DNA of 11,672 nucleotides from Promethearchaeota archaeon (GTDB taxonomy: Archaea; Asgardarchaeota; Lokiarchaeia; Sigynarchaeales; SOKP01), in NCBI GenBank assembly GCA_004524425.1, contig SDNN01000074.1, positions 1 through 11,672 of the forward strand. Reading direction: 5' to 3'. The notes below the pieces were generated by a model, which was given only the letters and a program-made list of their open reading frames with translations, was not told where the DNA came from and made no database searches. Positions 1-9,864 of this stretch are shown piece by piece (within the stretch, counting starts at the first letter, position 1; the number at the start of each line of letters is the position of its first letter). Made by a program: the position numbers and the translations under genes.

Positions 1-680
1 ATTGTCCTAAGCCAATAAAAATGCTTCAAACAATTATCAAGTAGATTTTGCTTTAAATTAGGATAGTGTAATCTACAGATTTCTGCCATGAATTCCTTGG
101 AGGGAAATTCTATCCAATGGAATACACATCTTCTTAAGAACGCATCTGGCAACTCTTTTTCATTATTAGAAGTTATGATAACAATGGGTCGAGTTTTTGC
201 TTTCACGAATTCCTTTGTTTCTTTGATATAAAACTCCATGACATCAAGTTCTTGAAGTAAATCATTAGGAAATTCGATATCGGCCTTATCAATCTCATCA
301 ATCAAAAGTACTACTTGTTCATCTGAGACAAATGCTTCCCCTAATGGACCTAGCGTGATATAATCTTTAATATTATCTACATTACGATCATCACATCCAA
401 ATCTACTGTCGTTTAACCTTTGCACCGTGTCATACATGTAGCACCCGTCTATTGCCTCAGTTGTACTTTTTATGTTCCAGATTATTAATCTCTTTCCGAG
501 AGCTTCCGCGATTGCGTGTGAAAGTAAGGTTTTTCCCGTTCCAGGCTCACCTTTTACGAGGAGAGGTCTAGCAAGTGCAATAGAAACATTAACGATATTT
601 CGAAGCTGAGGATCTGCAATATACCTCACACTGTCCGTATTAACGCTTCCCTGGAACTTGTTAAAATCAGAATTGCTCAT
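1..680 (-). CDS. MoxR-type AAA+ ATPase, partial (C-terminus beyond left edge)
   Basis: An open frame runs from an ATG at 680 to the window edge without a stop, giving 226 codons of the N-terminal part. It shows a complete AAA+ core: Walker A GEPGTGKT at residues 44-51, Walker B VVLLIDEID at 123-131, a sensor-1 stretch TSNNEKELPDAFLRR around 170-184 with the conserved Asn, and Arg183/184 as likely arginine finger. The spacing and the TSN-(x)n-ELPDAFLRR form are typical of the MoxR/RavA group, ATP-driven chaperone-like machines that usually act with a von Willebrand factor A protein encoded next door. Such a partner would lie left of the window and cannot be seen. The start is supported by a TATA-like element centred about 27 bp upstream and by the absence of a Shine-Dalgarno, which suggests a leaderless mRNA. 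The family call is secure; the client is unknown. Confidence 0.9.
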   Translation of the reverse strand, partial: MSNSDFNKFQGSVNTDSVRYIADPQLRNIVNVSIALARPLLVKGEPGTGKTLLSHAIAEALGKRLIIWNIKSTTEAIDGCYMYDTVQRLNDSRFGCDDRNVDNIKDYITLGPLGEAFVSDEQVVLLIDEIDKADIEFPNDLLQELDVMEFYIKETKEFVKAKTRPIVIITSNNEKELPDAFLRRCVFHWIEFPSKEFMAEICRLHYPNLKQNLLDNCLKHFYWLRT

Positions 681-3050: not shown

Positions 3051-4244
3051 TTAATCTCTTTGACTCAAAATGCTTACAGAACAGACTGTAAAAGCTCCAC
3101 CAAGATTATGGGCTAATCCTATTTTCGCATCAGGAACTTGCCTTCCTTCTGCACGTCCTTGAAGTTGCTTGCAGACTTCCGTGAGCATTCTGCATCCAGT
3201 AGAACCTATAGGATGTCCGAAACTTTTTAAACCTCCGGAGGCATTTACTGCGGTTTCGCCATCCCAATTAAACGTACCGTTTTTTAATTCTTCCGCTGCT
3301 TGTCCCCGATCGCAAAATTGAAGATCTTGGCAGTTTAACAATTCAGTAATGGTAAAACAGTCATGTACTTCAGCTACATCAATCTGCTTTCTAGGATCTG
3401 TTATCTGTGCTTCTTTGTAAGCTAATTCAGCTGCTTTTTCAGTGGCAGGAAAGTGCGTTAAATCCGCTCCGGGATGTCCCGGTGGTATATACCATGGAAA
3501 ATTAGTTTGACAGGAAATGGCATTTGCTTTGACTAATATATAATCATCAGCATGCGCATAACTTTCAGCCAGTTCTGGAGTCGTCAAGATGAGAGCAGCA
3601 GCACCATCACTCATGGCACAACAATCAAATCTGCCAAGAGGATCAGCAATCATTGGTGCTTTCATGACTTGTTCTACGGTAACCTCACTTCTGAAATGAG
3701 CTTTTGGATGATGAACTCCATTTGCATGGTTCTTCACGGCAACTCTTGCTAAATCTTCCTTTGACCATCCATATTCATGAAAACTTCGAGTAGCTGCCAT
3801 TGAGAACATCGCTGGAGCTGAAGGAGTGGGATATAAAGGATGACCGAAAATTCTGAATCCCGGTAATCCACTACCACCCTCATCCATTAGTTTTTCAACA
3901 CCACAAGCTAGAGCGACATCATAGGCACCAGAGGCGACGGCAAAAGAAGCGTTTCTAAATGCATCCATTCCACTAGCACAATAGTTTTCTACTCTGGTTG
4001 CTGGTTTACCATCCATTCTAAGCATGTCCTCAACCATGGCTCCAGATAATCCCGTGAAATAATAGAAAATACCAATCCAAGAAGCATCAATCTCGTCTTT
4101 TTTGATGCCTCCATCTTTTAAAGCGCTTTGGAAGGCCTCAAAAAGTAAATCATACTGATTCTTGTCCCATCTTTCTCCATATTTTGTCATATCACAGCCA
4201 ATTATGGCCACTTTATCTTTAATTCCTTTTCTAACCATTTTCAT
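3051..4244 (-). CDS. Archaeal thiolase (SCP2-type acetyl-CoA C-acyltransferase family)
   Basis: A full-length thiolase of about 397 aa. Numbering from a TTG at 4247, the nucleophilic Cys90 is in NYCASGMDAF, and the family motifs VHDCF (His295), NASGGLKSFGHPIGSTG (His345) and AHNLGG (His380) follow in order. Classical thiolases have a second Cys (CxG) where AHNLGG lies; His-Asn here is usual for the archaeal/SCP2 branch. Such enzymes condense two acetyl-CoA to acetoacetyl-CoA, or transfer acyl groups, and in archaea work in a complex with HMG-CoA synthase bridged by a DUF35 protein. The gene directly upstream encodes both of those folds fused, with only the intercistronic Shine-Dalgarno between them, so the two products almost surely form a complex. 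The start is taken as the ATG at 4244; the ATG at 4238 is also possible, and the TTG at 4247 abuts the Shine-Dalgarno and is unlikely. Exact substrate is not determined. Confidence 0.9.
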   Translation of the reverse strand: MKMVRKGIKDKVAIIGCDMTKYGERWDKNQYDLLFEAFQSALKDGGIKKDEIDASWIGIFYYFTGLSGAMVEDMLRMDGKPATRVENYCASGMDAFRNASFAVASGAYDVALACGVEKLMDEGGSGLPGFRIFGHPLYPTPSAPAMFSMAATRSFHEYGWSKEDLARVAVKNHANGVHHPKAHFRSEVTVEQVMKAPMIADPLGRFDCCAMSDGAAALILTTPELAESYAHADDYILVKANAISCQTNFPWYIPPGHPGADLTHFPATEKAAELAYKEAQITDPRKQIDVAEVHDCFTITELLNCQDLQFCDRGQAAEELKNGTFNWDGETAVNASGGLKSFGHPIGSTGCRMLTEVCKQLQGRAEGRQVPDAKIGLAHNLGGAFTVCSVSILSQRD

Positions 4245-4246
4245 CA

Positions 4247-4253
4247 ACCTCCT
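4247..4253 (-). promoter_or_regulatory. Intercistronic Shine-Dalgarno of the thiolase gene
   Basis: AGGAGGT on the minus strand follows the TAA stop (4256-4254) of the upstream gene directly. Counted from its GGAGG core (4252-4248), it lies 3 nt before the ATG at 4244 and 9 nt before the ATG at 4238. It implies efficient re-initiation on a shared mRNA and excludes the TTG at 4247 as start. Confidence 0.75.
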
Positions 4254-5693
4254 TTATTTTCTCCCCCTTACGGGTCTACATTTCCAATAATAATTCTTGA
4301 AATCGGCACCTTCATGTTCTTTTCTGAACGTTAATTCCACTTCCATTCCTATTTTCACGTTCTCTTCAGGTTTTTCAATTTCAGTCATGTTTAACAAGAC
4401 TCTTCCTCCGCCATCGAGATCAATGACACATCGGGGCACGGGAGTATCTAAGTACGCGCCGCCAACTAAATGATCCAAAGTAAATGTATAAATGGTACCC
4501 TTGTAAGAAAGTTTAACTCTTTCAAGCGTGTCATCAGCCCTGCACATGTAACAAGATCGAATCATATCTGGATATTGAATAGTTCCGCAATTGGTGCATT
4601 TTACACCATACCATTTATATACCGAATATCGATCCCGCCATATGGTAACTGCTGAACTTTTCCTGGTGTATCGGTCTTTTTCAAGCAATTCCTTGAAATC
4701 AAGGTATTTATTATAATTTTTAATAGTGGCCATGGATTTCTGATGTCCTTGCACGCCCATTCTCGTTTTACCAAGGTCTCTGAGGGCATTTCTATCACGA
4801 ACCTGCATTAGTATAGCATCTGCACCGTCTCCAAAACCAGCCAATATTACTTTATCATCTGGTTTAGGTCTACGTAATCCCCCAATTAAGAGTATGAAAG
4901 ACATTGGAGTTCCAAGATCTCCTAGTTGAAAAAACACGCTATTTTGAGCCACGCCTCCGCCGAATTTCATCATTTTTGAAACTCGGCTAAATAATCTAGG
5001 ATTATTATAATAATATGCTGCTATGTTTATATCCTCGGGATTTAGATTATTTCTTTTCAATAATTCACTCATCGCCGCGGAAATGCTTTGAACATAAAAT
5101 CGGGCATCCATTTTCACTTCAAATGTCCTAATGAACTCATCTTCATCAGCTCTCTTCCAAGGACCAGTCACATTAGCAGAAACAGAATAATAATCATCGA
5201 TGGATAATGGCAAGGTTTCTCCTTCAGCAATGAGAAAGGCTGCTGCTCCATCAGCAAAACCATATTCCCACATGGTTGAAGGTTCGGGTTTTCTAGTATC
5301 TGCAGCTACTACAAGAATACTATTTATATCCTTATTAGCTTTTATAGTATCTACTGCTCGAGTAATTGCGGTTGTACCAGCTTTTAGAGAATCAGTAAAA
5401 TCAGCAGTTATGACGTTTTCTCTCATGTCTAACACAGATGCTATCATCGAGGCAGAATCCTTTTCAGTATATACTTGAGTGGTTGACGCAAAAAATAATC
5501 CATCAACGGATTTAGGGTCAAAACCAGCTAAACAGTCCATTCCTGCTTCTACTGACATGGTTATCGTGTCCTCGTCTGCCATGGCGATTGCCTTGGTTCC
5601 TGGAACAATAGGAAAATCCCATGCTTTTCCTATTAACTCTCGTGGTAACATGTATTTTGGAAGGTAAGCTCCATAACTTTTGATACCAATCAT
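4254..5693 (-). CDS. HMG-CoA-synthase-like domain fused to DUF35 zinc-ribbon/OB-fold domain, catalytic residues replaced
   Basis: A 479-aa two-domain protein. Residues 1-300 follow archaeal HMG-CoA synthase from GIKSYGAYLPKY to a GFGDGADA stretch at 286-293. Residues 355-479 form a DUF35 module: a zinc ribbon with Cys366, Cys369, Cys381 and Cys384, then an OB-fold. In the archaeal mevalonate complex these are two separate chains. Aligned from memory with archaeal HMG-CoA synthase, the catalytic Cys (in FACKAGT) is Leu103 in TDSLKAGT, the Glu of SES is Thr71, and the His of FHQPN is Tyr229. The synthase reaction therefore looks impossible by the known mechanism. A scaffold or acyl/CoA-binding role for the partner thiolase is inferred, as in bacterial PhlACB, where as I recall the thiolase-like PhlC holds the active site. 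It is the first gene of the operon; an AGGT lies upstream of the ATG. Automatic labels of HMG-CoA synthase would mislead. Confidence 0.88.
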   Translation of the reverse strand: MIGIKSYGAYLPKYMLPRELIGKAWDFPIVPGTKAIAMADEDTITMSVEAGMDCLAGFDPKSVDGLFFASTTQVYTEKDSASMIASVLDMRENVITADFTDSLKAGTTAITRAVDTIKANKDINSILVVAADTRKPEPSTMWEYGFADGAAAFLIAEGETLPLSIDDYYSVSANVTGPWKRADEDEFIRTFEVKMDARFYVQSISAAMSELLKRNNLNPEDINIAAYYYNNPRLFSRVSKMMKFGGGVAQNSVFFQLGDLGTPMSFILLIGGLRRPKPDDKVILAGFGDGADAILMQVRDRNALRDLGKTRMGVQGHQKSMATIKNYNKYLDFKELLEKDRYTRKSSAVTIWRDRYSVYKWYGVKCTNCGTIQYPDMIRSCYMCRADDTLERVKLSYKGTIYTFTLDHLVGGAYLDTPVPRCVIDLDGGGRVLLNMTEIEKPEENVKIGMEVELTFRKEHEGADFKNYYWKCRPVRGRK

Positions 5694-6058: not shown

Positions 6059-6553
6059 TTAGTCATTCTCACTTATTTTCTTTTCTAACACTATTAAAAT
6101 GGGATTAAAGCCTGTTTTCGAGAAAACTTTAATCAATTTTTCAGGAACATCATAGCTCACGTTAATTCGAATTGATTCACATCCCCACGATTTTAGGATT
6201 TGTATCGCCCTATCAGCTAAAATTTTGCCCACGTGTTTTCCAATATATTCTTTTTTAGTTGCCCAATTATCAAGATAACCAATATATTGACCTAATGGAT
6301 TCTTCTGGGCTTCAAGCATTCCCATCCCCACTACTTCTCCCGTGTCTTTGGTTTCTGCAATTAAGGTAATGCGTTTTAAGTTCGGCTTAAATTGTCTCAA
6401 GCCGGAGGATTCTCTCCATTGTTCCTCTTTCAAACCGATGTCATATTGATGATGAAGTTCCTTTAAAATTTCTAATGTTGCTTCATAATCTGAAGTTCGA
6501 TAATTTCGAATTATAATTTCATCCTTTTCAAGTGATTCATCTGACATTTTCAT
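6059..6553 (-). CDS. GNAT-family N-acetyltransferase
   Basis: A 164-aa protein with the Gcn5-related acetyltransferase fold, which moves an acetyl group from acetyl-CoA to an amine. The N-terminal strand is IIIRNYRTSDYEAT (13-26). The middle strands are LIAETKDTGEVVGMGML (64-80) and YLDNWATKKEYIG (93-105). The pyrophosphate-binding loop GKHVGK at 105-110 corresponds to the family motif R/Q-x-x-G-x-G/A and is followed by helix ILADRAIQIL. The end has the usual FSKTGF turn (144-149). The acceptor cannot be told: small molecule, ribosomal protein and other proteins are all possible. It lies 10 bp downstream of the 344-aa gene on the same strand, so the two are probably co-transcribed. Start at Met1 (6553) or Met3 (6547) is not settled, as no strong Shine-Dalgarno is present. 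Confidence 0.88.
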   Translation of the reverse strand: MKMSDESLEKDEIIIRNYRTSDYEATLEILKELHHQYDIGLKEEQWRESSGLRQFKPNLKRITLIAETKDTGEVVGMGMLEAQKNPLGQYIGYLDNWATKKEYIGKHVGKILADRAIQILKSWGCESIRINVSYDVPEKLIKVFSKTGFNPILIVLEKKISEND

Positions 6554-6563
6554 ACCAACTTAT

Positions 6564-7598
6564 TTATTTTTTAATTATATTTAGTAAATTTACATCTACT
6601 CTTTTAGATAGTAATTTTTTCTTATCATTTTTATCCTCAATGATAAAGAAAAGATATTCGTCAATATGAGGTAATATTGGTGAAATAAATAAAAGTTCCT
6701 CTTCAGGATACCATATTTCAACTACTTGGTTCATGATTTCTTTCTCAAAAAATTCCTTGACGTGCGTAATTGAGACCCTTAGATCATTCATCTCTTCTTC
6801 TGTATTATTTTTTACTAATATTTCGAGTTCTTGGCTGTCTTCTATGACATTAATATTCAAAATGGAAAGTGCTGTTTTTAAGGATATATCATCAGCTTTT
6901 TTCTTTGAAGGATCAAATAATTTAATGCTTGAAAAAGAATTTGGTTCACCACCACTGCTCAAGTGAGACACATCAATTCCCTTTAAGGTTAAATATGAAA
7001 TGGCTTTTTGTTTTTTGATGGAACTAGGATCAATTTCTCTCACCGCCTTTTCAAAATAATCATCAACGGTTTTACCGATTAGATTCCACAGTTCTTTAGC
7101 AAATTTGTCACCTTTTTCAATTAGCTGTTTTACTTTCGGAGTTTTAATTACTTCGTCTTTTGCAATTTCACTTTCAATTATTTTAAATAGATCATCTTCA
7201 AAATTTTCGCGAATAGTTGAAGTTAATTTCCCAATTAGCTCGTCTCCAAAAATTTCAAGATCATTCGGCAATGAAATAATTATGACTATGGTTTCTGGAG
7301 TTTCTTCCTCTAATCCTGCTCGTCTTTTCTTTCTTTTTGATGTAGTTAAAAATTTTTTACCGAAAAAAGTGTATCCCTTATATTCTAAATCTATGTGGTC
7401 CAAAGCTGCTTGCTCTTCAACATCTAGAAACCAGATACTATGATATTTAATCGGTCTCATGTAATTTTTATCATCTTTATATTGGTCATCTGGATAGATC
7501 ATTAGAGGGATATGGCCTTTGGCCTCATCGAAGTATAAGACATAAACTACGCATAAATCCTCGATCCTTTCTTTTTCATCCCGTTCTTTCTTCGACAT
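6564..7598 (-). CDS. Uncharacterised 344-aa protein, possible longin-like N-terminus and beta-sandwich C-terminus
   Basis: A soluble, charged protein that I cannot assign to a named family. Residues 14-36 form two hydrophobic strands (LCVVYVLYFDE, then HIPLMIYPD). Further strands lie at 53-60, 68-85 and 103-110 and are followed by two amphipathic helices (118-146). This order resembles longin or related small-GTPase-associated folds, of which Asgard archaea have many. A helical linker spans 150-205. Residues 235-340 look like a beta-sandwich: LEILVKNNTEEEMNDLRVSI, IWYPEEELLFISPILPHIDEY, then FFIIEDKN and KRVDVNL. The KNNT-x-DLRV pattern recalls Ig-like or appendage domains. Both domain calls are inference from strand patterns. 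No membrane segment or signal peptide is seen. The gene is first in a unit with the GNAT gene, and has a TATA-like element near 7639-7646 and no Shine-Dalgarno. Confidence 0.75.
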   Translation of the reverse strand: MSKKERDEKERIEDLCVVYVLYFDEAKGHIPLMIYPDDQYKDDKNYMRPIKYHSIWFLDVEEQAALDHIDLEYKGYTFFGKKFLTTSKRKKRRAGLEEETPETIVIIISLPNDLEIFGDELIGKLTSTIRENFEDDLFKIIESEIAKDEVIKTPKVKQLIEKGDKFAKELWNLIGKTVDDYFEKAVREIDPSSIKKQKAISYLTLKGIDVSHLSSGGEPNSFSSIKLFDPSKKKADDISLKTALSILNINVIEDSQELEILVKNNTEEEMNDLRVSITHVKEFFEKEIMNQVVEIWYPEEELLFISPILPHIDEYLFFIIEDKNDKKKLLSKRVDVNLLNIIKK

Positions 7599-7754: not shown

Positions 7755-8843
7755 ATGAAAATAACGGATGTTAAGACTTATTTATTAGAACTTGATTTTA
7801 AAATTAAAATCGGTTCAATGCCGAGATTTAAAGCAACAGGATTATATACGAATATTCTAACTGATGAAGGAATTGACGGGTGGGCCTTATCTCATTGGAA
7901 TTTGAGCAATCTTGCCCAAAAACATTTTATCGACGAAGCCTTGAAGAGATTAGTGGTGAAAAAAGATCCTTTCATGGTGGAAGAGATTTTTAATGAAGTC
8001 TATCAAAACACTAATCGGATAATGTTTGGAATTCCCGTATCTACATCAGCCATTCAAATAGCATGCTGGGATATTATAGGAAAGGCGACTAAACAACCGA
8101 TCTATAAATTATTAGGGGGTAGAAAAAACAAAATAAAGGCATACGCTTCAATGCCTCGAGGATATTCTGCCAAGGCAGCCGTAGGTGCAGTTGAGGCTGC
8201 ATTAAATCCAGAATTAGGTGGGTTTAAAGCTGTAAAGTTACGAATTGGAAATGGAGTCAAAAAAGATGAGGAATTGATTAAAAACGTGAGAGATGCTTTT
8301 CCTGATATTGACATCATGTTGGATGCAAACTCAGCCTATCATTCCGTTAAAGATGCAGTAGAATTAGCGAAAGTTTGCGATAAATATAGAATAACTTGGT
8401 TAGAAGAGCCCATTCCTACAGACAATTTAAATGGTCTTGCGAAAATAAGAGAACAAGCTCCAGTTGAAATTGCTGGCGGCGAGAATGATTTCGGTATTTA
8501 TCGATTTGAAGATATATTATCAAAAGAATGTTTTGATATTGTACAACCTGATGTAACAAGAAGTGGCGGTTATCTACAATTAAAGAAGATCGATGCCATG
8601 GCAGAAGTGAAGGGCGTGAGATGCATTCCCCATATATTTGGGTTTGGTCATATTCTCGCCGCAAATCTTCATTTTGTCATGTCAACGAGATGTGAATGGT
8701 GCGAATTTCCATTCATTCCCGATGAGTATCAATTACTTGAAGAGCCGATAAAAGCAGAGAAAGGCTGGGTATCAGCAATAGATAAACCAGGCTTAGGAGT
8801 GGAAATTAATAAAGAAATGTTTGAAAAAAACGTGCTTAAATGA
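7755..8843 (+). CDS. Enolase-superfamily enzyme, mandelate racemase/muconate lactonizing type
   Basis: A complete 362-aa member. The N-terminal capping domain (1-125) precedes the beta-barrel. The metal ligands are Asp190 (LDANSAY), Glu217 (LEEP) and Glu243 (GGEN). A His-Asp dyad is formed by Asp265 (QPDVTRSGG) and His293 (IPHIFGFGH), whose 28-residue spacing matches mandelate racemase. The first base motif is K161-x-R163 (VKLRIG), with Arg where mandelate racemase has its catalytic Lys166. Enzymes of this kind take the proton next to a carboxylate and then racemise or dehydrate, often acid sugars such as galactonate or rhamnonate. The intact dyad favours an acid-sugar dehydratase or a related reaction, but the substrate cannot be read from sequence. 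No sugar kinase, aldolase or transporter lies next to it. It is a single-gene unit, divergent from the 344-aa gene and followed by a T-rich terminator. Confidence 0.88.
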   Translation: MKITDVKTYLLELDFKIKIGSMPRFKATGLYTNILTDEGIDGWALSHWNLSNLAQKHFIDEALKRLVVKKDPFMVEEIFNEVYQNTNRIMFGIPVSTSAIQIACWDIIGKATKQPIYKLLGGRKNKIKAYASMPRGYSAKAAVGAVEAALNPELGGFKAVKLRIGNGVKKDEELIKNVRDAFPDIDIMLDANSAYHSVKDAVELAKVCDKYRITWLEEPIPTDNLNGLAKIREQAPVEIAGGENDFGIYRFEDILSKECFDIVQPDVTRSGGYLQLKKIDAMAEVKGVRCIPHIFGFGHILAANLHFVMSTRCEWCEFPFIPDEYQLLEEPIKAEKGWVSAIDKPGLGVEINKEMFEKNVLK

Positions 8844-9009: not shown

Positions 9010-9864
9010 ATGAATACTCTCATTTTTTATAATTTGATAATTTATCTTTTAATTAGAATTATCGGATTGGGTATTGCCGTTGATCTCTACCATAAAACGA
9101 AGGGATTTAGGTTTAGGTTTCCCATTTTTGGATGGTCTTGCATGGTAATTGCCTCCCTCGCATCATTGTATGTAGGGTTAATAACCAACAATGATCTGAT
9201 AGAGCTCTTTCTATTTTTTAATACCTTATTCGTATCTCTAGGCATTATCTTCTTTATATGGTGGATTTTTACCTATTTCTTAGAGGTTCCTAATAGAGTA
9301 TTCTACTTTTTATTGATTTCCATGGTTTTTTTTCTCATAATAATATTTTATGCTACAAACTATAGATTAGCCATAAATTTTGCTGTATCAATCGTCATTG
9401 TCATGTTATCTAGCTTATATGTCATACCATTTTTAAAATGGAAGGAATTTAAAGCAAGCATGGGCATCGCACTTAAGTGGTATTATGCGTTTCTTATTAG
9501 TTTGGGAATTCATATTCCCATCACGTTATATATCACGTTTCAAGGATTAGGTTATCAGGGTATACGTAGCTCATATGATCTGTATTTAATATTTTTTAAT
9601 TTCGTCCCTTCTATACTTTATTCTATAGTGTTAATTATCCTGCTAATACACGTGGAATATAACTATTCCTACAATCAAAAAGCTGAATTAAAAGATAAAT
9701 ATTCTCATGATTTAGGAAATATTTTACAGTTTATCACGGGATACATGGATGTCGCATCTCCAAATGATGAATTAAATGATAAAGAAAAATTAGAATTGAA
9801 AAATACATTTAAAGTAAAATGCAAGGAAGCAGCTGATCTTCTCAAGGAAATAAGAGAATTATGA
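9010..9864 (+). CDS. 7TM membrane protein with histidine-kinase-type phosphoacceptor tail and no ATPase domain
   Basis: A 284-aa protein. Seven hydrophobic segments (about residues 4-27, 36-59, 64-90, 97-116, 121-142, 155-178 and 190-214) are followed by a cytosolic tail of 70 residues. The tail holds SHDLGNILQFITGY (232-245), which matches the H-box H-D-x-x-N of histidine kinases with His233 as possible phosphate acceptor. A second helix (259-284) could complete a dimerisation hairpin. The N, G1 and G2 boxes of a HATPase domain are absent: the frame ends at TGA 9862-9864, and the opposite-strand gene begins 12 bp later, so no frameshifted domain follows. It may be a phosphorelay intermediate, a sensor that needs a separate kinase, or a dimerisation tail only. 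The start is supported by the TATA box at 8980. No response regulator lies nearby. Confidence 0.8.
   Translation: MNTLIFYNLIIYLLIRIIGLGIAVDLYHKTKGFRFRFPIFGWSCMVIASLASLYVGLITNNDLIELFLFFNTLFVSLGIIFFIWWIFTYFLEVPNRVFYFLLISMVFFLIIIFYATNYRLAINFAVSIVIVMLSSLYVIPFLKWKEFKASMGIALKWYYAFLISLGIHIPITLYITFQGLGYQGIRSSYDLYLIFFNFVPSILYSIVLIILLIHVEYNYSYNQKAELKDKYSHDLGNILQFITGYMDVASPNDELNDKEKLELKNTFKVKCKEAADLLKEIREL

What the first reader, a model, noticed from the sequence alone, without database searches (positions are those of the whole stretch)
4254..5693. HMG-CoA-synthase-like domain with all three catalytic residues replaced
By alignment from memory with archaeal HMG-CoA synthase, Glu of SES becomes Thr71, the nucleophilic Cys of FACKAGT becomes Leu103 in TDSLKAGT, and the His of FHQPN becomes Tyr229. 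The surrounding sequence still follows the family, so this is loss of chemistry and not poor alignment. Sequence identity with real HMG-CoA synthase will lead annotation pipelines to call it active. A conserved dead paralogue fused to an acyl-carrying module and paired with an active thiolase points to a different acyl-transfer system.
Basis: partly seen in the sequence, partly recalled or inferred. Interest (0 to 1): 0.72.

Follow-up and report, generated by a model that had tools for sequence, protein, structure and literature searches.

The report
Inactive HMG-CoA-synthase-like partner of a thiolase
A Lokiarchaeial gene that looks like the isoprenoid enzyme HMG-CoA synthase has lost every residue needed for that chemistry and most likely serves as the non-catalytic half of a neighbouring acyl-CoA (thiolase) enzyme, in a wide family that databases often mislabel.

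Summary
The minus-strand gene 4254-5693 encodes 479 aa: an HMG-CoA-synthase fold fused to a Zn-ribbon/OB domain (DUF35). Profile alignment to the M. thermolithotrophicus enzyme puts Thr71 at Glu82 and Leu103 at Cys114; the catalytic His falls on Tyr228, not Tyr229. None of 240 aligned relatives has Glu, Cys or His at these places. Close pairs show purifying selection, and 13 of 14 Lokiarchaeial genomes searched carry a separate, intact HMG-CoA synthase. A thiolase gene follows in 26 of 28 loci (the other two end too early) and stands beside it in 12 of 12 further Asgard loci; its catalytic motifs are kept in 47 of 47 aligned.

The precedent exists: PhlA, the dead HMGS-fold subunit of the PhlABC acylase (PMC6392133). 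Relatives on plasmids sit among beta-oxidation genes in 10 of 13 regions viewed, so I read the pair as a beta-ketoacyl-CoA thiolase with a pseudoenzyme scaffold; but Lokiarchaeial loci lack such neighbours and often have an aromatic-amino-acid lyase instead, which keeps an aromatic C-acylation/deacylation reading open. Real, widespread, often misnamed; a new variant of a known kind.

The parts
4254..5693 (-). HMG-CoA-synthase-like / DUF35 fusion protein, 479 aa (P0001)
4659..5693 (-). HMGS-fold (thiolase superfamily) domain, residues 1 to about 345, without the catalytic triad
5481..5483 (-). Thr71, at the place of catalytic Glu (Glu82 in 6esq_I)
5385..5387 (-). Leu103, at the place of the nucleophilic Cys (Cys114 in 6esq_I)
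5010..5012 (-). Tyr228, at the place of the catalytic His (reader gave Tyr229)
4272..4649 (-). DUF35 domain (Zn ribbon plus OB fold), residues 349-474
   Evidence: PF01796 44.5 bits over cut-off 27.1; 6esq_E E 9.3e-10
4542..4598 (-). four presumed zinc-ligand Cys: 366, 369, 381, 384
   Evidence: Cys at all four in 240 of 240 sequences
3051..4247 (-). thiolase, 398 aa from TTG 4247 (ATG at residues 2 and 4 are possible starts); 6 bases after the fusion gene's stop
   Evidence: NF004810 511.3 bits over cut-off 403
3978..3980 (-). thiolase nucleophile Cys90 (VENYCASG)
   Evidence: Cys in 47 of 47 aligned pair thiolases
3363..3365 (-). thiolase His295 (HDCF motif)
   Evidence: 47 of 47
3213..3215 (-). 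thiolase His345 (GHP motif)
   Evidence: 47 of 47

Best explanation
The pair encodes one thiolase-type enzyme complex, with a fused A-B chain and a separate C chain. Shown: the HMGS-fold domain has no HMG-CoA-synthase triad, the thiolase has its catalytic Cys and His residues, and the two genes travel together in Asgards, bacteria and one haloarchaeal plasmid. Inferred: they assemble like the M. thermolithotrophicus thiolase/DUF35/HMGS and PhlA2C2/B4 complexes. The thiolase Cys90 takes the acyl group. The DUF35 domain bridges the two chains and walls the CoA/substrate cavity. The HMGS-fold domain is a pseudoenzyme that closes and shapes that cavity and is needed for assembly. The likeliest reaction is reversible thiolysis of an unusual (branched, cyclic or aromatic) beta-ketoacyl-CoA in a beta-oxidation-like pathway; the substrate is not known.
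For: Triad absent in 240 of 240 and in 7 of 7 plasmid relatives aligned. Thiolase directly downstream in 26 of 28 loci, the other 2 being cut off, and beside it in 12 of 12 further Asgard loci chosen. Thiolase Cys, HDCF and GHP in 47 of 47. P0002 is nearest to the acetoacetyl-CoA thiolase of the three-part archaeal complex: 222 bits, against 159 for benzoylsuccinyl-CoA thiolase 7pxp, 92 for Sal (9myr), 87-88 for PhlC, 62 for the 9vbo complex. Enoyl-CoA hydratase/MaoC or acyl-CoA dehydrogenase genes in 10 of 13 annotated plasmid regions viewed. In distant Asgards: 3-hydroxyacyl-CoA dehydrogenase (L123, L131, in pieces in L124), acyl-CoA dehydrogenase (L130), CoA-transferase and acyl-CoA ligase (L121); a CoA-transferase relative behind the thiolase in L028. 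dN/dS 0.07-0.12 in four pairs. Dead precedent with only the C subunit held to be catalytic: PhlABC (PMC6392133).
Against: No complex was modelled and no assay exists. A tblastn with ten beta-oxidation-type proteins found no relative in the window or in the 27 Lokiarchaeial loci; of Lokiarchaeial-type loci only L129 has an enoyl-CoA hydratase gene, about 4.9 kb from the fusion gene. The Lokiarchaeial neighbours are a GNAT, an MLE-type enzyme, an AAA ATPase and often an aromatic amino-acid lyase. Three of 13 plasmid regions lack hydratase and acyl-CoA dehydrogenase genes. Such genes are common on catabolic plasmids; no control with other thiolases was run. Listed plasmid relatives are only 28-34% identical to P0196, itself about a third identical to P0001. 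Because I lowered this from 0.6 to 0.55.
Confidence: 0.55

Rival explanations
1. A PhlABC/MucABC-like C-acyltransferase (or deacylase): the thiolase Cys moves an acyl group to or from a carbon nucleophile such as a phenol, indole or tetramate-like ring, with the dead HMGS and DUF35 as scaffold.
Against: The thiolase is far nearer to CoA thiolases than to PhlC (222 against 87-88 bits). PhlA/MucA branch apart from this family (100/99). Bacterial and some Asgard neighbours are acyl-CoA enzymes. No lyase stands beside the pair in the window or in 19 of 28 loci (L026 has no upstream sequence).
Confidence: 0.22
2. The HMGS-fold domain keeps a binding role of its own: it holds acyl-CoA or a product and gates or regulates the thiolase (chain-length-factor-like), with conserved Glu77 and Glu192 part of the new pocket.
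For: Glu77 is in 239 and Glu192 in 235 of 240 sequences, while the intact HMGS rows have Val at the place of Glu77. PMC2954200 proposed a length-setting role for PhlA. PhlA has room for acetyl-CoA (PMC6392133).
Against: No ligand evidence. Conserved residues may serve the interface only. CoA-binding residues were not tested here.
Confidence: 0.12
3. It is a working HMG-CoA synthase with a shifted or non-canonical active site.
For: Fold match to HMGS and database names in the list. A Cys stands one place before the usual one (position 102) in 33 of 120 L028-type relatives, though not in P0001.
Against: P0001 has no His in residues 1-316 and a single Cys (54) there. 0 of 240 keep any triad residue. 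Intact HMGS exists in 13 of 14 Lokiarchaeial genomes. Scores are under the curated HMGS cut-offs.
Confidence: 0.02
4. It is a decaying pseudogene.
For: Loss of all three catalytic residues.
Against: Open frame of steady length, zinc Cys kept in 240 of 240, dN/dS 0.07-0.12 in relatives.
Confidence: 0.01

Closest known systems
PhlABC, multicomponent (Friedel-Crafts) C-acyltransferase of Pseudomonas protegens (5m3k, 5mg5); Chromobacterium sphagni ATase (9skh)
   Same: HMGS-fold subunit without Cys and Glu (Gly115 and Cys83 in PhlA, PMC6392133), a DUF35 chain, and a Cys-bearing thiolase-fold catalytic chain
   Different: A and B are separate chains in Phl; the replaced residues differ; PhlC is much further from P0002 than CoA thiolases are; PhlA branches apart; Phl works without CoA (PMC6392133)
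[quoted passage not shown]
   Different: There the HMGS is active (Glu82, Cys114, PMC6392133); here the triad is gone and the domain is fused to DUF35
MucABC complex (9vbo, Streptococcus macacae)
   Same: Multi-component acyltransferase whose HMGS-like chain also lacks the triad (Cys, Glu and Gln at the three places, read from the alignment)
   Different: Very divergent; the S. mutans MucABC is given a tetramate C-3 acetylation role (PMC10161427, passages); not in the same branch
Benzoylsuccinyl-CoA thiolase BbsAB (7pxp) and DUF35-thiolase-fold aldolases (Sal/Shy, Ltp2/ChsH2); IpfDE of ibuprofen breakdown
   Same: A DUF35/OB-fold partner of a thiolase-fold enzyme acting on CoA esters (PMC12329534; PMC11347016 for IpfDE, passages)
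   Different: No HMGS-like chain is described for them in the passages read; the BbsA model scores 35.5 against a cut-off of 250

Membership tests
HMG-CoA synthase | thiolase-superfamily HMGS fold | tested here: met
HMG-CoA synthase | catalytic Glu, Cys and His | tested here: not met
   Thr71, Leu103, Tyr228; 0 of 240 sequences have any of them
HMG-CoA synthase | curated model cut-off (NF003274, TIGR00748) | tested here: not met
   167.6 against 244 and 110.9 against 353.35 bits
[quoted passage not shown]
   needs an assay
PhlABC-type multicomponent C-acyltransferase | triad-less HMGS-fold A subunit | tested here: met
   PhlA residues in PMC6392133
PhlABC-type multicomponent C-acyltransferase | DUF35 B component with Cys4 zinc ribbon | tested here: met
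   present, but fused to A
PhlABC-type multicomponent C-acyltransferase | thiolase-fold C subunit with nucleophilic Cys | tested here: met
   47 of 47
PhlABC-type multicomponent C-acyltransferase | same sequence branch as PhlA/MucA | tested here: not met
   PhlA+MucA 100/99 against this family 100/97; tree unrooted, MucA branch very long
PhlABC-type multicomponent C-acyltransferase | CoA-independent C-acylation of activated rings | not testable with these tools
   needs an assay
DUF35-associated beta-ketoacyl-CoA thiolase | thiolase with Cys, HDCF and GHP motifs | tested here: met
DUF35-associated beta-ketoacyl-CoA thiolase | physical complex with DUF35 partner | not tested
   inferred from gene pairing and homologous complexes only
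DUF35-associated beta-ketoacyl-CoA thiolase | beta-oxidation context | tested here: inconclusive
   10 of 13 plasmid regions and some distant Asgards yes; window and 27 Lokiarchaeial loci no

The most novel reading that the evidence does not exclude
In Lokiarchaeia the complex is a CoA-dependent aryl C-acylase/deacylase: the pseudo-HMGS and DUF35 hold a phenol or indole released (or captured) by the divergently encoded aromatic amino-acid lyase, while thiolase Cys90 carries the acyl group. This would be an archaeal Friedel-Crafts-type route linking aromatic amino acids to acyl-CoA metabolism.
Probability: 0.1. Interest if true: 0.75.

Novelty: new variant of a known kind. Interest (0 to 1): 0.42.

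Why it matters
37 of 148 genomes drawn from this phylum have a strong match to the fusion protein (E at most 1e-100; one, G077, has two stops inside the match), and named bacterial relatives come from several groups. Databases often name it HMG-CoA synthase, which can mislead reconstructions of the Asgard mevalonate pathway and lipids. It also gives a large natural set in which a synthase became the non-catalytic half of another enzyme, so the role of the A subunit in PhlABC-like complexes can be tested. The Lokiarchaeial link to aromatic amino-acid lyases is a concrete lead for an unknown pathway.

Tried and rejected
Active HMGS, pseudogene: rejected (rivals). Archaeal-type HMGS in Lokiarchaeia: TIGR00748 gave no hit over its cut-off in 15 genomes; PF01154 then found enzymes in 13 of 15, that is 13 of 14 Lokiarchaeial. 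The first extraction of these used the wrong strand for 9 of 17 loci; those nine short reads were discarded and all 17 were redone: Glu, Cys and His present in 17 of 17 (in L075 the Cys motif differs slightly and fails the strict pattern). In one search the wrong ORF of L138 was taken (a 385 aa protein); it was dropped and replaced by its 351 aa ORF, whose triad was checked only (present). Whole-genome check of the window's own organism: not possible. Beta-oxidation relatives beside the pair in Lokiarchaeia: none in the window or 27 loci, one distant hydratase in L129. A TPL relative in the window: none found. Pfam on an L124 fragment thought to be a dehydrogenase did not support it, but tblastn shows dehydrogenase pieces in other frames there. 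Literature: ten searches (listings and starts of abstracts seen) showed no paper that I recognised as describing this fusion family; a search for tyrosine phenol-lyase with Lokiarchaeota listed no paper. The PNAS 2018 paper on the archaeal complex is not held and was not read. Not done: third protein search, second structure job, complex modelling, a control for thiolase neighbourhoods.

Full report
What is there. The window is of Lokiarchaeial origin by its protein relatives (nearest named relatives are Promethearchaeota/Lokiarchaeia MAGs; 27 of 28 loci carry Lokiarchaeota or Lokiarchaeia titles). The finding's ORF lies on the minus strand: 479 aa, residues 1 to about 345 an HMG-CoA-synthase/KAS-III fold and 349-474 a DUF35 domain. 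Six bases further on is a 398 aa thiolase on the same strand.

The replaced residues. In 120 Asgard-type sequences Thr71 is constant, Tyr228 is Tyr in 117 (Ser 2, Ala 1) and position 103 is Leu 82, Thr 37, Ile 1. Glu71, Cys103 and His228/229 occur in 0 of 240. A Cys stands at the neighbouring position 102 in 33 of the 120 L028-type rows; I do not count it as the nucleophile, but this was not tested structurally. P0001 has one Cys (54) and no His in residues 1-316. Only the 120 listed of 1141 and the 120 listed of 623 hits were aligned.

Not decay. Four close pairs give dN/dS of about 0.07 (L003/L004), 0.12 (L002/L006), 0.09 (L012/L013) and 0.085 (L016/L017); against the window itself dS is saturated. 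The four zinc-type Cys are kept in 240 of 240.

A separate true enzyme. PF01154 finds an HMG-CoA synthase in 13 of 15 genomes, 13 of the 14 Lokiarchaeial ones (not found in G007 nor in the Cellulomonas-labelled G015; completeness of these genomes is not given). Read on the right strand, 17 of 17 hits keep Glu, Cys and His. Seven archaeal-type enzymes from other Asgards keep them too (six, L138). So the mevalonate step need not depend on the dead protein. The window's own genome is not held.

The partner. The thiolase follows directly in 26 of 28 loci; the other two are cut off at the contig end; in L019 it is in two pieces and in L014 cut. It also stands next to the fusion gene in 12 of 12 further Asgard loci that I chose from the hits. 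Cys90, HDCF and GHP are kept in 47 of 47 aligned thiolases, second tandem copies in L010, L015 and L016 included; the fourth motif (HNLGG) varies in L028, L149 and L154; partial or broken copies (L011 and L017 second copies, L014, L019) were left out. The nearest solved structure is the thiolase of the archaeal three-part complex (222 bits), then 7yvy (213), SCP2-thiolases (177), benzoylsuccinyl-CoA thiolase 7pxp (159); 9myr (Sal) 92, PhlC 87-88, 6ok1 78 (listed as lipid-transfer protein; Ltp2 by recall), the 9vbo chain 62.

Family history. A tree of 51 HMGS-like domains sets 11 intact enzymes on one side of a branch (99/96), this family and unfused dead relatives of other Asgards in one group (100/97), and PhlA plus MucA in another (100/99). 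Unrooted, it allows a single loss of the triad but does not show it. The fused state needs two changes on this tree (two fusions, or one fusion and a split), because the haloarchaeal plasmid protein L154, a long branch of unsure place, groups with unfused ones.

Context. I viewed 13 of the 36 plasmid records with a match. A thiolase is annotated next to the fusion gene in 12 (before it in the Natrinema record); in the Paraburkholderia record the gap has no listed gene, and that gene table is incomplete. In 10 of 13 the region holds enoyl-CoA hydratase/MaoC or acyl-CoA dehydrogenase genes; one more has CoA-transferase and ligase, one SDR genes only, and the Natrinema one none. Aromatic-ring dioxygenase genes lie in 3 of 13. 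In distant Asgards the neighbours include 3-hydroxyacyl-CoA dehydrogenase (L123, L131; in pieces in L124), CoA-transferase plus acyl-CoA ligase (L121), acyl-CoA dehydrogenase (L130) and an acetoacetate-decarboxylase-type gene (L125, L126). Against this, ten beta-oxidation-type query proteins have no tblastn match (E 1e-5) in the window or in the 27 Lokiarchaeial loci, many of them short; L129, also Lokiarchaeial-like, has an enoyl-CoA hydratase gene about 4.9 kb from the fusion gene, and L028 a CoA-transferase relative behind the thiolase. No control with other thiolases was run, and catabolic plasmids are rich in such genes.

The lyase. A tyrosine phenol-lyase homologue lies divergently upstream in 8 of 28 loci (L001, L002, L006, L007 in two pieces, L010, L015, L016, L017; L026 has no upstream sequence). 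The two copies scored reach 712 and 715 bits, just under the TIGR02618 cut-off of 720.7; copies in 5 of 148 genomes pass it. A different, tryptophanase-like lyase stands at the same place in L127 and L128, and one 30% identical to the phenol-lyase in L011. Of 8 Lokiarchaeial genomes with the full-length enzyme, 6 have it beside the pair. Among 148 genomes of the phylum, 23 of 37 with the fusion gene (E at most 1e-100) and 29 of 111 without have a lyase hit of either kind (Fisher p 1e-4); relatedness is not corrected for, so this is a lead only. The window has no such gene beside the pair.

Known or new. PMC6392133 (passages and section 6 read) states that PhlA lacks the Cys (Gly115) and Glu (Cys83) and concludes that only PhlC takes part in the acyl transfer. 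PMC2954200 (passages read) calls PhlA an inactive thiolase-superfamily member, notes fusions of DUF35 to thiolase-superfamily domains, and proposes DUF35 as acyl-CoA carrier. PMC12329534 and PMC6996347 (passages read) describe DUF35 as scaffold, the first also as pocket wall. PMC12955522 (passages read) attributes the activity mainly to PhlC. PMC10161427 and PMC11347016 (passages read) serve only for MucABC and IpfDE. What is added here is the extent, strict conservation, fusion and gene setting of a dead HMGS family in Asgards and bacteria. In the searches named under Tried and rejected I recognised no paper describing it; subscription papers are mostly absent from that library.

Judgement. 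Observation confirmed with one residue shifted; interpretation partly supported. Best reading: a DUF35-fused pseudo-HMGS that scaffolds an active thiolase, probably acting on beta-ketoacyl-CoA. Shown: sequence loss, conservation, selection in relatives, pairing, thiolase motifs. Inferred: complex, cavity, reaction.

Noticed in passing
L001, L002, L006, L007, L010, L015, L016, L017 (upstream of the pair): Tyrosine phenol-lyase homologue divergently adjacent to the fusion gene in 8 of 28 loci; a C-terminal fragment match in L008 and extra tail fragments in L006, L010, L017.
   Followed up: partly
L127:5163-6776, L128:8656-10269, L011:8-1333: A different beta-eliminating lyase (tryptophanase-like in L127) occupies the same divergent place.
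   Followed up: partly
L010, L015, L016: A second intact thiolase copy in tandem behind the first.
   Followed up: partly
L140-L147: Unfused, also triad-less HMGS-like genes in other Asgards; in several the match runs past a stop into the DUF35 part.
   Followed up: partly
L059-L075: Lokiarchaeial HMG-CoA synthases are long (541-579 aa open frames) and found by PF01154; none passes the archaeal-type TIGR00748 cut-off.
   Followed up: partly
window 6059-6553, 6564-7598, 7755-8843: GNAT, a 344 aa unknown protein and an MR/MLE-type enzyme keep company with the pair in many Lokiarchaeial loci; an MLE-type gene also lies near the pair in L028.
   Followed up: partly
L125:11538-12284, L126:10264-11007: Acetoacetate-decarboxylase-type gene (PF06314) a little downstream of the pair.
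   Followed up: no
window 9010-9864: Membrane protein whose last 60 residues look like a histidine-kinase H-box region (HDLGN) with no ATPase domain; judged by eye, no Pfam hit.
   Followed up: no
window 3-680: AAA-type ATPase, cut by the window end, found near the pair in several Lokiarchaeial loci.
   Followed up: no
one search list: 20 rows show a JGI name and all 20 read HMG-CoA synthase (two cut short); 3 NCBI names read hydroxymethylglutaryl-CoA synthase family protein, although the triad is absent.
   Followed up: yes
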